This document shows, in pieces, positions 17,966-38,654 of a stretch of DNA of 38,716 bases. The notes beneath the pieces were generated by a model. The model did no database searches. It was not told the origin of the DNA and saw only the letters and a program-made list of their open reading frames with translations. Location: NCBI GenBank assembly GCA_018061325.1, contig JAGOUJ010000008.1, positions 1-38,716 of the forward strand, given 5' to 3'. This DNA is from Gammaproteobacteria bacterium (lineage in GTDB: Bacteria; Pseudomonadota; Gammaproteobacteria; UBA6186; Azoamicaceae). Within the stretch, counting starts at the first letter, position 1. Each line of letters opens with the position of its first letter. The translations under genes and the position numbers were made by a program.

Positions 17966-18005
17966 GCCCCCACCCCAACCCTCCCCCGCCAAGCGAGGGA
18001 GGGAG
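17966..18005. repeat. Family A GC-rich palindrome, truncated copy
   Basis: Begins GCCCCCACCCCAACCC; the core stem CCCTCCCCCGC / GCGAGGGAGGG has loop CAA and one mismatch. The outer right arm present in the copy at 30424-30477 is missing. It lies between the ABC ATPase stop and the convergent membrane-protein pseudogene, where it may act as a terminator stem. Confidence 0.8.
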
Positions 18006-18015
18006 TAATGAATGG

Positions 18016-18871
18016 TTAAGCCGCCTGAGCCTTTCTTAAGCACAAATCATATAAAACTGCCAATATCAATGCGTTCACTAAAGGATTAAAGAAAGCTGTG
18101 AATGTCCATGTGAACAAGTCTTTTATGTGCTGGGGTTCTCGTATAGAGGTCGTGAATGGCGGTGTCAGCATCCATAATCGCATCCAATAGTTTGTCTCGG
18201 TCACAACACTCGGCTCTGTTCCCGTGCCCCAAAAAAAGCACCAAACTGCCAGTATAGAAATTGTTATAAGATAAATTCCAAGTAAACATAAACCAGTAAT
18301 GATAGCAAACTACAAGAAGACGAATAGCCGTAAACCACCAACGCTTTGAAACCAATGCAAAACCGGCTCGAATAGAACTCCAAATACCCCGATCATCAAT
18401 GATAGCTATAGAAGAAGCAAAAACAAGATATACTGTCAGTATTACAAAAGGTATTGCAACAAATGTCATACTAAAAATTACCTTTAAATATGAAGGAATG
18501 GCAAGGTATGACCCTAGTTTTATATAGGGCATTAGAAACAATAGAGCACTGCCCATAACCATGGCTGTTGTTAAGAGAATAATGACCATCGAAAATACCC
18601 AGGTTTTTTTAACAAGGGCTTTACATGCTACAAGCTTATATGTCATCTGCCCTCTGCTACGATGAATACAATCGATAATTAAAGTATGGGTTAAACAACT
18701 AAATAACCACATCAAAATGAATATTATGCCGATAAACACCCATGCACTATAAGGTTCATACATCGCATAATAGTCGGACAACCTTGTTAATCTAAGAAAT
18801 TTCGCAGCGAATCTACCGATATCTATATAATTTATATGCTGAAATAATACGCTGAGGGTTGCAAAAACCAT
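18016..18871 (-). pseudogene. Multi-pass membrane protein (paralogue of 19569-20294), frameshifted
   Basis: The upstream open frame (18871-18086) encodes membrane segments similar to the neighbouring paralogue (shared IDCIHRSRGQ/IDAIHRGRGQ, IAIIDDRGIWSSIR/LAIIDDSGIVQSIR), then runs into unrelated sequence. The proper C-terminus (NALILAVLYDLCLRKAQ, matching HALMLETLYDLRLRKAG) lies in another frame down to 18016. Removing one T from the TTT at about 18307-18309 restores VVAIITGLCLLGIYLITI and joins the two. The first 25 or so residues of the paralogue are also absent in frame. The family resembles UPF0259/YciC-type membrane proteins of unknown function; that label is tentative. Confidence 0.75.
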
Positions 18872-18922
18872 AGAAAAGGGCCATACAAATATTTCTCAAG
18901 CAATCTTACTATACTCGCAATA

Positions 18923-18966
18923 ATTCTCGCAAGAATCTTGAGATGTATCGAATATTGATATAAGAT
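18923..18966 (+). promoter_or_regulatory. Candidate higBA promoter and operator
   Basis: TTGAGA (18938-18943), 17 bases, TAAGAT (18961-18966). Just upstream is the inverted repeat ATTCT-CGCA-AGAAT (18923-18936), a plausible HigA operator. The -10 ends five bases before the higB ATG, so the transcript would be leaderless or nearly so. Confidence 0.4.
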
Positions 18967-18971
18967 ATACC

Positions 18972-35273: not shown

Positions 35274-35414
35274 CGATAGCTTCCTATTGAAGATTGATGA
35301 GACCTCCAACTGTAACAGCCAAGGGTCTTTTGAGCAAGATAGAGATTGTGATAAAGTCAGTCCTGGTCCATTTTGTTTTATAAAGCAAATTAACTAAGGT
35401 TCTTAAAAAACACT

Positions 35415-35696
35415 ATGAAACTTGATCAAAAAAGCATTGAACATCTAGCTCATTTGGCACGTTTGTCGCTGGATAAGGAACACAGCCTGCAAGAAGATCT
35501 GGTTCGAATCACCAATATGATCGAACAGATCGCCCTGGTGAATACCGAAGGGGTGGAACCCATAGCGCATCCTTCACAGAGCGTACAACGCTTACGCGCC
35601 GATGTTGTGACAGAATCGGATCAATCAGCGCTTCTGGCTGCCCTTGCACCTTCTGTAGAAGCGGGCTTATTTTTAGTGCCTACTGTGTTGGAGTAA
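35415..35696 (+). CDS. gatC: Aspartyl/glutamyl-tRNA amidotransferase subunit C
   Basis: The 93-residue helical clamp that holds GatA and GatB together. It opens IEHLAHLARLSLDKEHS and has the EPIAHPSQSVQRLRADVVTE segment typical of GatC. It is the first gene of gatCAB, seven bases before gatA. Presence of the complex implies indirect synthesis of Gln-tRNA and/or Asn-tRNA. Confidence 0.95.
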   Translation: MKLDQKSIEHLAHLARLSLDKEHSLQEDLVRITNMIEQIALVNTEGVEPIAHPSQSVQRLRADVVTESDQSALLAALAPSVEAGLFLVPTVLE

Positions 35697-35703
35697 TTAA
35701 AGC

Positions 35704-37167
35704 ATGCATACCAAAACGCTCGCCGAACAATCGGATGATCTAAACCACAAACGCTATTCTAGCGAAGAACTCACCCAACATTATTTGAAGCGCATTAAGC
35801 GTCTGGACCCGCAAATAAACAGCTTTATTAGCCTGGATGAAGAAGGGGCTTTAACGACAGCCCGTTTGGCTGACCAAAAACGTGCAGCGGGTGAAACAGG
35901 TCCACTCCTTGGGATCCCACTGGCACACAAAGATATTTTCTGTACACAGGGTCTTAAAACCAGCTGTGGTTCAAAAATGCTGGATAACTTTATCGCACCC
36001 TATGATGCGACCTTGGTACAAAAACTCAAAAAAGCCGGTACCGTACTGCTGGGCAAAACCAATATGGATGAATTTGCCATGGGTTCTAGTACCGAAAATA
36101 GTTTTTATGGTCCTACCAAAAACCCTTGGGATCTCAGCACGGTACCTGGCGGCTCTTCCGGCGGCTCTTCCGCTGCGGTGGCAGCCTGTTTAACCCCGGC
36201 AAGCACAGGGACTGATACGGGCGGTTCCATCCGACAGCCCGCCGCACTGTGTGGTGTGACAGGGCTTAAACCCACTTATGGTCGCGTGTCTCGCTATGGC
36301 ATGATTGCCTTTGCCTCAAGCCTCGATCAAGCCGGTCCTATTGCCCGAACCGCCAAAGACTGTGCTCTGCTTCTACAAGCCATGGCGGGTTTTGATACCT
36401 TCGATTCCACCAGTACCGATCTGCCTGTACCCGATTACCTCGCCACGCTTGAACAATCTATTCGAGGGCTTAAAATTGGACTACCCACTGCTTTTTTTAA
36501 GGATCAGCCCCATCCGGGTGTTGCAGCCGCGACAGAAGAAACTTTAACGCTTTTAAAAAGCCTGGGCGCTACGGTGCAAAGCATCGAGTTGCCACATATC
36601 GCTTACTCCATACCCACTTATTATGTGATCGCACCCGCTGAATGTTCTTCGAATCTCTCACGTTATGATGGCGTGCGTTTTGGCTATCGTTGCAAAGATC
36701 CCGTGAATCTTGAGGATCTGTATAAGCGTTCCCGTACCGAGGGCTTTGGAACAGAGGTTAAACGGCGTATTCTGATTGGCACCCATGTGCTTTCCAGTGG
36801 ATACTATGACGCTTATTATCGTCAAGCCCAACAGCTTCGCGCGCTTATTGCACAGGATTTTGCTGCAGCTTTTGGCAAAGTTGATGTAATTTTAAGCCCC
36901 ACAACCCCTACGCCTGCTTTTGCGCTGGGTGATAAAGCCAAAGACCCCTTAAGCATGTACCTCTGTGACATTTATACGGTTGGGGTTAATTTGGCAGGTT
37001 TACCGGCCCTTTCCATGCCCGGTGGTTTTGTGGATCAACGTCCTGTGGGTATTCAGCTGATTGCCAATCATTTTGAGGAAGCACGTCTATTAAATGTCGC
37101 CCATCAATTTCAACAAAATACGGTTTGGCATCAAGCCATCCCTACGCTTTTTGGAGCAACCCTTTGA
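35704..37167 (+). CDS. gatA: Aspartyl/glutamyl-tRNA amidotransferase subunit A
   Basis: The 487-residue glutaminase of the amidase-signature family that releases ammonia for GatB. The catalytic triad is visible: K76 (AHKDIF), S151 (GGSSGGSS) and S175 ([12 protein letters not shown]), with the same spacing as S. aureus GatA (79, 154, 178, by recall). The glutamine-specific region around residues 300-420 is intact. The stop TGA overlaps the gatB ATG (TGATG), giving translational coupling. Confidence 0.97.
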
Positions 37168-38654
37168 TGAAAACAACCTGGGAAGTCGTGATTGGCCTTG
37201 AAGTACACGTACAACTGGCAACAAAATCTAAACTTTTTTCCGGTGCCTCAACAGCCTATGGGGCTGCGCCTAATACACAGGCCTGTGGCATCGATATAGC
37301 CTTGCCGGGTGTTTTACCCGTGCTCAATGAAGCAGCTTTAACCATGGCCATCCGTTTTGGTCTGGCGGTGCAATCGACCATTGCCTTACAATCGGTTTTT
37401 GCACGCAAAAATTATTTCTACCCTGATCTGCCCAAAGGCTATCAGATTAGCCAATTTGATCACCCCATTGTGCAAGGCGGGCATCTCTGCTTTAGTCTGG
37501 AGGATGGTACGACAAAGACGATTCATCTAACCCGTGCCCATTTAGAAGAAGATGCAGGTAAATCGTTGCACGAAGATTTTCATGGTTGCTCAGGGATCGA
37601 TCTTAACCGTGCAGGGGTCCCCCTCTTAGAAATCGTCTCTGAACCCGAATTACGATCTGCCGAAGAGGCGGTGGCCTATCTCAAGGCTTTACATAGCCTA
37701 GTGCGCTATCTAGGGATCTGCGATGGTAATATGCAAGAAGGATCCTTTCGTTGCGATGCCAATGTCTCGGTCAGACCGCTAGGACAATCAACGCTTGGTA
37801 CCCGTGCAGAAATTAAGAATGTGAATTCTTTTCGTTTTGTAGAAAAAGCCATACGCTATGAAATGGCCCGTCAAATTGAAATCTTAGAAAGCGATGGCAC
37901 CGTGATACAGGAAACACGCCTCTACGATTCCCAAAAAGATCAAACCCGTAGTATGCGTGCCAAAGAAGAAGCCAATGATTATCGTTATTTCCCAGATCCG
38001 GATCTATTACCCGTGGTAATTGATAAGCACTTTATTGATTCTATCGCCCAAACATTGCCCGAATTACCCGCACAAAAAGCGGAACGTTTTAGAACGCAGT
38101 ATGGCTTAAGCCCTTATGACGCTGCCGTGCTTACGGCAGAGAAAGCTTTGGCTGATTTCTTTGAAGCAGCGTTGAAGGCAAGCCACACCTACCCTAGCCC
38201 TTCCCCGCATAGCGAGAGAGAGAACCAGAATAGCGCAAAATTATGTGCGAATTGGGTCATGGGTGAATTATTAGGTGCTTTAAATAAACATCATTTAGAT
38301 ATTACACAAAGCCCTATCACGCCGCTGCGTCTTGGACAATTACTCAAGCGGATCCAGGATCAAACTATTTCTGGTAAAACCGCTAAAGTGCTTTTTGAAG
38401 CCTTATGGCAGAGCGATGAAGACATCGATAGCCTGATTGAAAAACGCGGTTTTAAGCAGGTAAGCGATGCAAGCGTGATCGCAGCCATGGTCGATACCGT
38501 TTTGGCGGCACACCCTAGCCAATGCGAGGAATATCGTAAGGGTAATGAACGCTTGTTTGGGTTTTTTGTGGGCCAATTGATGAAAATAGGCGGTGGTAAC
38601 CTTCATCCAGAAATGGCTAATCAGATTTTAAGGGATAAACTCGCTCAGCACTAA
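37167..38654 (+). CDS. gatB: Aspartyl/glutamyl-tRNA amidotransferase subunit B
   Basis: The 495-residue subunit that phosphorylates and amidates misacylated Glu-tRNA-Gln or Asp-tRNA-Asn. I start it at ATG 37167 ([17 protein letters not shown]), overlapping the gatA stop; the frame extends to 37125 inside gatA. The kinase/amidase core ([43 protein letters not shown], then [11 protein letters not shown]) and C-terminal YqeY-like tail (ending [10 protein letters not shown]) are complete. Residues about 340-354 ([15 protein letters not shown]) come from a degraded family A palindrome inserted between the helical and tail domains, just before [13 protein letters not shown]. Confidence 0.97.
38184..38226 (+). 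repeat. Family A palindrome, degraded copy within gatB
   Basis: CACACCTACCCTAGCCC then TTCCCCGCATAGCGAGAGAG corresponds to the left arm, loop and partial right arm of family A. The stem is now weak through mutation, as expected for an old insertion in an essential gene. It is read in the same frame as the mutS copy (compare PNPPPLSE with PSPSPHSE). Confidence 0.75.

What the first reader, a model, noticed from the sequence alone, without database searches (positions are those of the whole stretch)
17966..38226. A protein-invading palindrome family (family A) in an AT-rich genome
Four copies of one GC-rich palindrome (core CCCTCCCYCGC-loop-GCGRGGGAGGG with CCCCCACCC outer arms) occur in 20 kb: after the ABC ATPase, inside mutS, across the ispA/yhdP junction and inside gatB. 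Two lie inside core-gene coding sequence without breaking the frame, and two genes take their stop codons from one copy. This resembles the Rickettsia palindromic elements that insert into ORFs and are tolerated as protein segments, but the sequence is different and the host looks gammaproteobacterial. No mobilising enzyme (such as a REP-associated transposase) is visible here, so it would act in trans.
Basis: partly seen in the sequence, partly recalled or inferred. Interest (0 to 1): 0.78.

Follow-up and report, generated by a model that had tools for sequence, protein, structure and literature searches.

The report
Triplex-type DNA repeat invading protein genes
A short GC-rich repeat of an already described kind (a hairpin with a matching third strand) is scattered through this bacterium, mostly right at the ends of genes, and at least once it sits inside a core protein as an extra, probably floppy, loop.

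Summary
The family has at least 19 places in the 1.28 Mb genome, four in the window: 4 bp after an ABC gene, inside mutS, across both stop codons of ispA/yhdP, and, decayed, inside gatB. Orthologues lack the inserted residues (0 of 27 MutS, 0 of 29 GatB).

The interpretation needs changing. Each unit is a hairpin plus a 9-nt mirror block (C-rich strand CCCCCACCC-YAR-CCCTCCCCCGC-NNN-GCGRGGGAGGG), the three-block design of the published BoxC/PIT/TM intrastrand-triplex repeats. A model built only on this genome finds the E. coli K-12 BoxC pair at fepB-entC, and the third block covaries with the stem. No REP tag is present; this genome's two RAYT remnants adjoin a different, GTAG-tagged REP.

Details not seen in the papers read: three places carry two inverted units around a shared core (180-224 bp, MITE-like); all 11 asymmetric units at stop codons have the C-rich strand as sense, 7 of 8 in genome G124, but only 6 of 12 in nine relatives, so the rule is not general. 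What moves the repeat is unknown. New variant of a known kind.

The parts
17967..18003 (+). Family-A unit 1, C-rich strand +: third-strand block 17967-17975, linker, stem 17979-17989, loop, stem 17993-18003; 4 bp after the stop of the ABC ATPase ORF 16645-17961
25626..25662 (-). Family-A unit 2 inside mutS, in frame (reads [13 protein letters not shown]); stems 25626-25636 and 25640-25650, third-strand block 25654-25662
   Evidence: loop residues 219-230 have pLDDT <50
30428..30476 (.). Family-A unit 3, symmetric (third-strand block on both sides); supplies the stop codons of ispA (ends 30439) and yhdP (ends 30451)
38184..38222 (+). Decayed family-A unit 4 inside gatB, in frame (reads [14 protein letters not shown])
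23886..26318 (-). mutS carrying unit 2
37164..38654 (+). gatB carrying unit 4
29489..30439 (+). ispA, extended by five residues (YPPPP) into unit 3
30451..32967 (-). yhdP, C-terminus (IAPTPTLPH) and stop from unit 3

Best explanation
Family A is a local subfamily of the BoxC / PIT / TM intrastrand-triplex repeats. As single strand, the G-rich strand can fold into a hairpin (CCCTCCCYCGC-NNN-GCGGGGGAGGG) whose purine arm is then covered by the downstream GGGTGGGGG block in reverse-Hoogsteen fashion. Singles are either lone units or broken ends of a 180-224 bp MITE-like composite (unit, shared core, inverted unit) seen at three places. Shown here: the three-block sequence design, its covariation, a profile-level relation to E. 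coli BoxC, the copies, the orthologues without the insert, the composites, the orientation in this genome. Inferred: that the triplex forms, that it stalls polymerases and so drives gain, loss and decay of copies, and that insertions survive mainly where they do least harm (just past stop codons, or in a loop with the C-rich strand as sense, where translation reads a stop-free hydrophilic stretch). The dispersing enzyme is unknown.
For: Design: PMC4666352 describes BoxC/PIT/TM as hairpin plus third strand, in more than 260 genomes, folding as a triplex in vitro. Independent test: R1, built only from this genome, hits both BoxC units in the K-12 fepB-entC gap (29.7 bits, E 2.7e-4; 25.0 bits, E 2.2e-3; 65.7 kb searched); over 1.03 Mb in 46 other named loci it gives one strong hit (L142, 49.5 bits) and one at E=1. 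Covariation: 45 units, own third-strand score 8.29/9 against 7.68 for swapped blocks, 0 of 10,000 permutations; 17 unique combinations, 37 of 10,000; stem position 6 C goes with block C (28), T with T (10), 7 other rows. Stem mismatches in this genome: 19 are C.A on the C-rich strand (T.G on the G-rich strand) against 4 others, in 19 rows. Distribution: motif in 18 of 368 gammaproteobacterial genomes (own included), reversed control 0. Tolerated in proteins: insert absent in 27 of 27 MutS and 29 of 29 GatB orthologues; low-confidence loop between two helices in the AF2 MutS model (mean pLDDT 84.7; two other segments are also below 50); gaps of 7 and 15 residues at these places in the 1e3m and 4wj3 alignments. 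Composites.
Against: E. coli TM is reported as always intergenic and without strand bias, unlike here. The K-12 hits are modest scores for a GC-rich, low-complexity motif, so convergence is not excluded. The covariation rows are not independent; 23 of the 31 matches in relatives were used (those with a locus at hand, two odd G014 hits dropped); four of the 45 rows were misparsed (G005b, C10b, C17, gatB). The T.G asymmetry may be one founder change (12 of 19 rows share the site). Triplex formation was not tested, and in vivo footprinting in E. coli did not show it. No target-site duplication was found.
Confidence: 0.78

Rival explanations
1. A RAYT-mobilised REP: copies were spread by a REP-associated tyrosine transposase acting in trans, now decayed.
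For: Two RAYT-type (Y1_Tnp) remnants are in the genome (C66:459-647, 23.9 bits; C6:41063-41245, 21.1 bits, below the cut-off of 23) and near-complete ones in congeners G001 and G003. A hairpin equal to the inner stem of family A (CCCCCGC-AAA-GCGGGGG) lies about 100 bp from the G003 gene (L208:1382-1398), a partial R1 match without third block (17.5 bits, E 0.03).
Against: No GTAG tag in family A. Both remnants begin at a GTAGGGGCGGAC... repeat, and a separate GTAG REP family has 24 pattern matches. R1 finds no full unit within the RAYT loci held (up to 1.5 kb each side) of G001, G003, G007 and G010 or beside the two remnants. G002 has no Y1_Tnp match at E up to 0.001.
Confidence: 0.11
2. A MITE cut loose from an ordinary insertion sequence: the 180-224 bp composite is the mobile form and single units are its broken ends (as QMITE2 in Coxiella burnetii has full-size and REP-like small forms).
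For: Three composites share core sequence and inverted ends; at glyQ-glyS the sister G002 keeps only one diverged end; QMITE2 shows the same full/small pattern.
Against: Only 3 composites among 17 loci; no target-site duplication seen; no insertion sequence with these ends came up, though none was specifically searched for.
Confidence: 0.3
3. Functional RNA or DNA signal at gene ends (terminator, mRNA 3' end protector), kept by selection.
For: 11 of 17 loci lie within 15 bp of a stop codon, far above a rough 6% expectation, and in this genome always C-rich sense.
Against: No terminator-like site at copy 1 (the only copy scanned). Sister G002 keeps clear family-A sequence at only 2 of 16 comparable loci, with doubtful traces or other hairpins at four more. 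Published PIT elements had no terminator activity.
Confidence: 0.12
4. Ordinary conserved protein sequence or chance GC-rich runs.
For: None beyond the low complexity of the motif.
Against: Orthologues lack the residues; shuffles and reversed controls give almost nothing.
Confidence: 0.01

Closest known systems
BoxC / PIT / TM_ECO intrastrand-triplex repeat of Escherichia coli and >260 genomes (Holder et al. 2015, PMC4666352)
   Same: Hairpin plus a third block after a 3-nt linker, G/C-rich class II design, 20-odd copies per genome, inverted pairs, patchy distribution; found by R1 in K-12
   Different: Stem CCCTCCCCC with block CCCCCACCC instead of CCCTCTCCC with CCCTCACCC; adds a GC/GC closing pair; some copies in coding sequence; fixed orientation at stop codons in this genome; composites with a shared core
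GTAG- and CGTC-tagged REPs, including intragenic ones (Di Nocera et al. 2013, PMC3733652)
   Same: Short GC-rich hairpins, often abutting stop codons, in-frame copies in DNA repair and other core genes
   Different: No GTAG or CGTC tag; a third block instead; no RAYT adjoining it. A true GTAG REP family coexists here
Rickettsia palindromic elements (RPE; described in PMC2229807 and PMC10969869, passages seen)
   Same: In-frame insertion into conserved protein genes, tolerated as extra residues
   Different: RPEs are given there as ~105-150 bp with their own reading frame, often in genes; here units are ~45 bp and mostly at gene ends. No RPE sequence was compared
QMITE2 of Coxiella burnetii (PMC5896051)
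   Same: Full-size ~190 bp form with inverted ends plus small REP-like forms, mainly at 3' ends of genes
   Different: QMITE2 carries a GTAG REP and 7-11 bp direct repeats; neither is shown here

Membership tests
BoxC/PIT/TM intrastrand-triplex repeat | Three consecutive blocks: two hairpin arms and a third-strand block matching the purine arm | tested here: met
   Third-strand score 7-9 of 9 in 17 of 19 rows of this genome; the two others (C10b, gatB) and C17 were misparsed (C10b 9, gatB 8 in the parse); covariation across genomes
BoxC/PIT/TM intrastrand-triplex repeat | Sequence relation to the E. coli consensus | tested here: met
   R1 finds both fepB-entC units in K-12; scores modest
BoxC/PIT/TM intrastrand-triplex repeat | Isolated strand forms a triplex | not testable with these tools
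   needs CD/NMR
BoxC/PIT/TM intrastrand-triplex repeat | Intergenic location (reported for E. coli, not part of the definition) | tested here: not met
   mutS, gatB and a solute-binding protein gene hold copies
GTAG REP | Terminal GTAG tag | tested here: not met
   alignment A1; GTAG scan of window
GTAG REP | RAYT gene beside the repeat | tested here: not met
   only a partial hairpin match near the G003 gene
CGTC REP | CGTC tag and A/T pairs at the stem base | tested here: not met
   A1 consensus, stem base C-G; definition
RPE | 105-150 bp element with its own reading frame, in genes of Rickettsia | tested here: not met
   unit ~45 bp, other host class; size; RPE sequences not compared
MITE | Terminal inverted repeats around a shared core | tested here: met
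   three composites
MITE | Target-site duplication | tested here: inconclusive
   no clean empty site among G002 loci

The most novel reading that the evidence does not exclude
BoxC/TM units are the recognition ends of an unrecognised mobile element which, in some lineages such as this one and G124, inserts or survives in one orientation relative to transcription (third block facing the stop codon, C-rich strand as sense), and which in small genomes can be turned into protein loops.
Probability: 0.2. Interest if true: 0.64.

Novelty: new variant of a known kind. Interest (0 to 1): 0.45.

Why it matters
BoxC/TM repeats have been known since the 1990s without an agreed mechanism of spread or function. 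A genome where copies gained since the split from a close sister sit inside core proteins, as ends of a composite, and in a fixed orientation at stop codons offers insertions with known ancestral states, so the mode of insertion, the strand that folds and the cost to proteins can be tested. It also warns annotators: PHPNPPP-type segments in proteins can be DNA repeats read through, not conserved protein sequence.

Tried and rejected
Rejected: conserved protein sequence; REP by tag; RAYT ownership; intrinsic terminator at copy 1 (only that copy scanned); any Rfam family at gathering score (none in the window). Target-site duplications: the sister-genome alignments gave no clean empty site; in several the G002 side holds other hairpins or insertions. 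One such is a GTAG REP at the very gatB site where this genome holds family A.

A first third-strand score misread copy C17, and a second ignored strand and misassigned many rows; both are superseded, which still misparses four rows. Of 31 R1 matches in relatives it used 23: five of G031, one of G006 and both of G014 were left out. The stop-codon figure uses my rough estimate of gene spacing, not a genome-wide permutation. Peptide searches of the literature gave one paper, an E. coli listing that happens to contain BoxC.

A structure of GatB was not predicted: I took its genome-search loci not to be allowed in that tool. The MutS model was not searched against structure libraries.
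Full report
WHAT IS THERE. The window is contig C20 of a 1,283,856-base, 67-contig genome. Four copies of one GC-rich repeat lie at 17967-18003, 25626-25662 (minus), 30428-30476 and 38184-38222. The core pattern with one mismatch has 8 matches against 0.70 expected and at most 3 in 100 shuffles. Genome-wide the hairpin pattern with three mismatches has 25 places and the reversed pattern none. 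A covariance model R1 from 15 aligned units gives 19 distinct places in this genome and matches in 10 of 32 relatives, one to ten in each (a lower bound, 150 of 344 candidates scored in this genome; the training units match by construction).

ANATOMY. Read on the C-rich strand the unit is CCCCCACCC-YAR-CCCTCCCCCGC-NNN-GCGRGGGAGGG, often followed by a tail such as GATTTGA. The first nine bases are the mirror image of the first nine of the stem, with A for T. On the other strand this is a hairpin with a purine 3' arm followed by TTR-GGGTGGGGG, which can lie antiparallel on that arm with G.G-C and T.A-T triads. Three window copies fold better than shuffles as single-stranded DNA (z -3.29, -2.80, -3.91), the gatB copy does not (z -0.68), but neither does the E. 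coli BoxC unit folded beside them (z -0.83). The copy 30428-30476 carries the block on both sides.

IS THE THIRD BLOCK REAL? The test used 45 units: 19 of this genome, 23 of nine relatives, two of E. coli K-12 and one of a Pasteurella. The third block fits its own stem better than swapped stems (8.29 against 7.68 of 9; 0 of 10,000 permutations; for 17 unique combinations 37 of 10,000). Where the stem has T at position 6 instead of C, the block mostly changes with it (28 C/C, 10 T/T, 7 other rows). Rows are related, and four are misparsed. Within this genome the stem's mismatches are nearly all C.A on the C-rich strand, that is T.G on the G-rich strand (19 against 4), as expected if the G-rich strand folds; but 12 of 19 rows share one site, so a founder change may explain much of it.

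WHAT FAMILY. This is the design of BoxC, also called PIT or TM: published as a hairpin plus third strand, in more than 260 genomes, a stable triplex in vitro, 23 copies in K-12, linked with genome instability, not shown to form stably in vivo (PMC4666352: abstract, passages, and sections on abundance, in vitro folding, the E. coli motif and the first part of the discussion). R1, which saw no E. coli sequence, finds both units of the inverted pair between fepB and entC of K-12; 1.03 Mb of other named loci gives one strong hit and one at E=1. One 37-base E. coli BoxC sequence is matched in 4559 of 5426 E. coli genomes. The family-A form of the motif, with up to one mismatch, is in 18 of 368 gammaproteobacterial genomes, this one included, with the reversed control at 0, in scattered families. 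The REP families fail: no GTAG or CGTC tag, and the two RAYT remnants of this genome are truncated and begin at a GTAGGGGCGGAC... REP. One result leans the other way: about 100 bp from the RAYT gene of congener G003 lies a hairpin equal to family A's inner stem, without third block (R1 17.5 bits, E 0.03). A separate GTAG REP family is present in this genus (24 pattern matches here, 29 in G002, up to three mismatches).

PROTEINS. mutS encodes 810 residues and reads [13 protein letters not shown] through the copy. None of 27 orthologues has it, including one at 89-90% identity. An AF2 model (27 sequences, mean pLDDT 84.7) puts residues 219-230 below 50 between two helices; residues 669-675 and 758-778 are also below 50. 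E. coli MutS (1e3m) has a 7-residue gap there. gatB has a decayed copy; none of 29 orthologues has these residues, and the 4wj3 chain has a 15-residue gap. In the sister G002, gatB carries a GTAG REP, in frame, at the same site: two different repeats used the same permissive linker. A copy near the start of a solute-binding protein gene (C40) reads as residues ahead of its hydrophobic segment, if the upstream start is the true one. In G006 a related unit lies in frame within a SucA-type protein between its two Pfam domains; its orthologues were not compared. ispA is lengthened by five residues and yhdP also ends in the repeat; in G002 both end without it.

GENE ENDS AND ORIENTATION. Counting composites once there are 17 loci; 11 lie within 15 bp of, or contain, a stop codon. 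With a rough 6% expectation this is far from chance, but selection against insertion into genes would give much of it. All 11 asymmetric units at stops have the C-rich strand as sense, as do the mutS and gatB copies; the two units read as G-rich sense lie at or near gene starts (C60b, C40), and C34 and C17 also reach the start region of a downstream gene as C-rich sense. In G124, of another family, whose pattern matches number 86, the 20 best R1 units were examined: none inside an ORF of 120 residues or more, 8 within 25 bp of a stop, 7 of these C-rich sense. In 20 units of nine relatives, however, 12 stop positions lie within 25 bp and split 6 to 6, some of them in doubtful ORFs. So the bias is strong here and in G124 but not general. 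K-12 is reported without strand bias.

COMPOSITES. At C60:2819-2998, C49:8368-8546 and C10:36240-36462 two units face each other around a shared core (TTGAAATCATGCTG..AAACAAACATGCATGAAAAAATAC...), 180-224 bp in all. This resembles QMITE2 of Coxiella, which has full-size and small REP-like forms (PMC5896051, outline and two sections on QMITE2). Against sister G002, 16 of the 17 loci could be compared. Clear family-A sequence remains at two (a diverged unit after glyQ, half a unit after a methyltransferase gene); at four more (C40, C34, C11, C8) there are doubtful traces or another hairpin. No clean empty site or target duplication was found. For mutS and gatB the outgroups lack the insert, so these are gains; elsewhere gain and loss cannot be told apart.

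MECHANISM. Most likely the unit forms a transient hairpin-triplex when its strand is single, during replication or transcription, and this drives its turnover; copies persist just after stop codons or in loops. C-rich sense may be favoured since it gives no G-rich transcript and reads as stop-free hydrophilic residues. The design, the relation to BoxC, positions and orientation are shown; triplex formation, stalling and the way copies spread are inferred. Whether the composite or the unit is the moving form is open.

LITERATURE. Intragenic REPs are described, often in repair genes and supplying stop codons (PMC3733652, outline, first part of Results, and sections on variation and distribution), as are in-frame MITEs and RPEs (PMC2229807 and PMC10969869, passages). 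In searches of the held library I saw no report of BoxC/TM units inside proteins or of the orientation bias; of most listed papers I saw only the listing, and subscription papers are missing from the library.

Noticed in passing
23788-23840 and 38677-38710: A second palindrome family: perfect 24-nt arms (TTTTTTTCCCTCACCCCCCGGCCC) between the TamB-like gene and mutS, with a second copy at the window's end. In G002 the same gap holds about 500 bp whose inverted ends match it (L049 7562-7597 and 8069-8034). Inverted pairs of a similar hairpin are on C39 and C45, so this looks like a MITE with long terminal repeats.
   Followed up: partly
G000, G002, G003, G006 (loci L256-L275): A classic GTAG REP family (GTAGGGGCCGGTCTCNGTGCCGGCCC) is frequent in three of the six congeners searched (own included) and in neighbour G006.
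   Followed up: partly
L016 459-647 and L017 1501-1683: Two truncated RAYT-type transposase remnants, each starting at a GTAGGGGCGGAC... REP; congeners G001 and G003 have near-complete ones.
   Followed up: partly
L177 1762-1787 (G002 gatB): A GTAG REP is inserted in frame in the sister's gatB at the site where the window has the decayed family-A copy.
   Followed up: yes
6806-7132: Fragment of an IS110-type transposase (PF01548).
   Followed up: no
18972-19565: HigB-like toxin and helix-turn-helix antitoxin pair.
   Followed up: no
L245 1620-3000 (G002): Between ispA and yhdP the sister genome has about 1.4 kb with two small unknown ORFs where the window has only the family-A copy.
   Followed up: no
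L066 1501-1547 (G006): A CTCTCCC-type triplex unit lies in frame in a 2-oxoglutarate dehydrogenase E1 gene.
   Followed up: partly
L208 1340-1500 (G003): Next to the RAYT gene of G003 lie two small hairpins, one equal to the inner stem of family A.
   Followed up: partly
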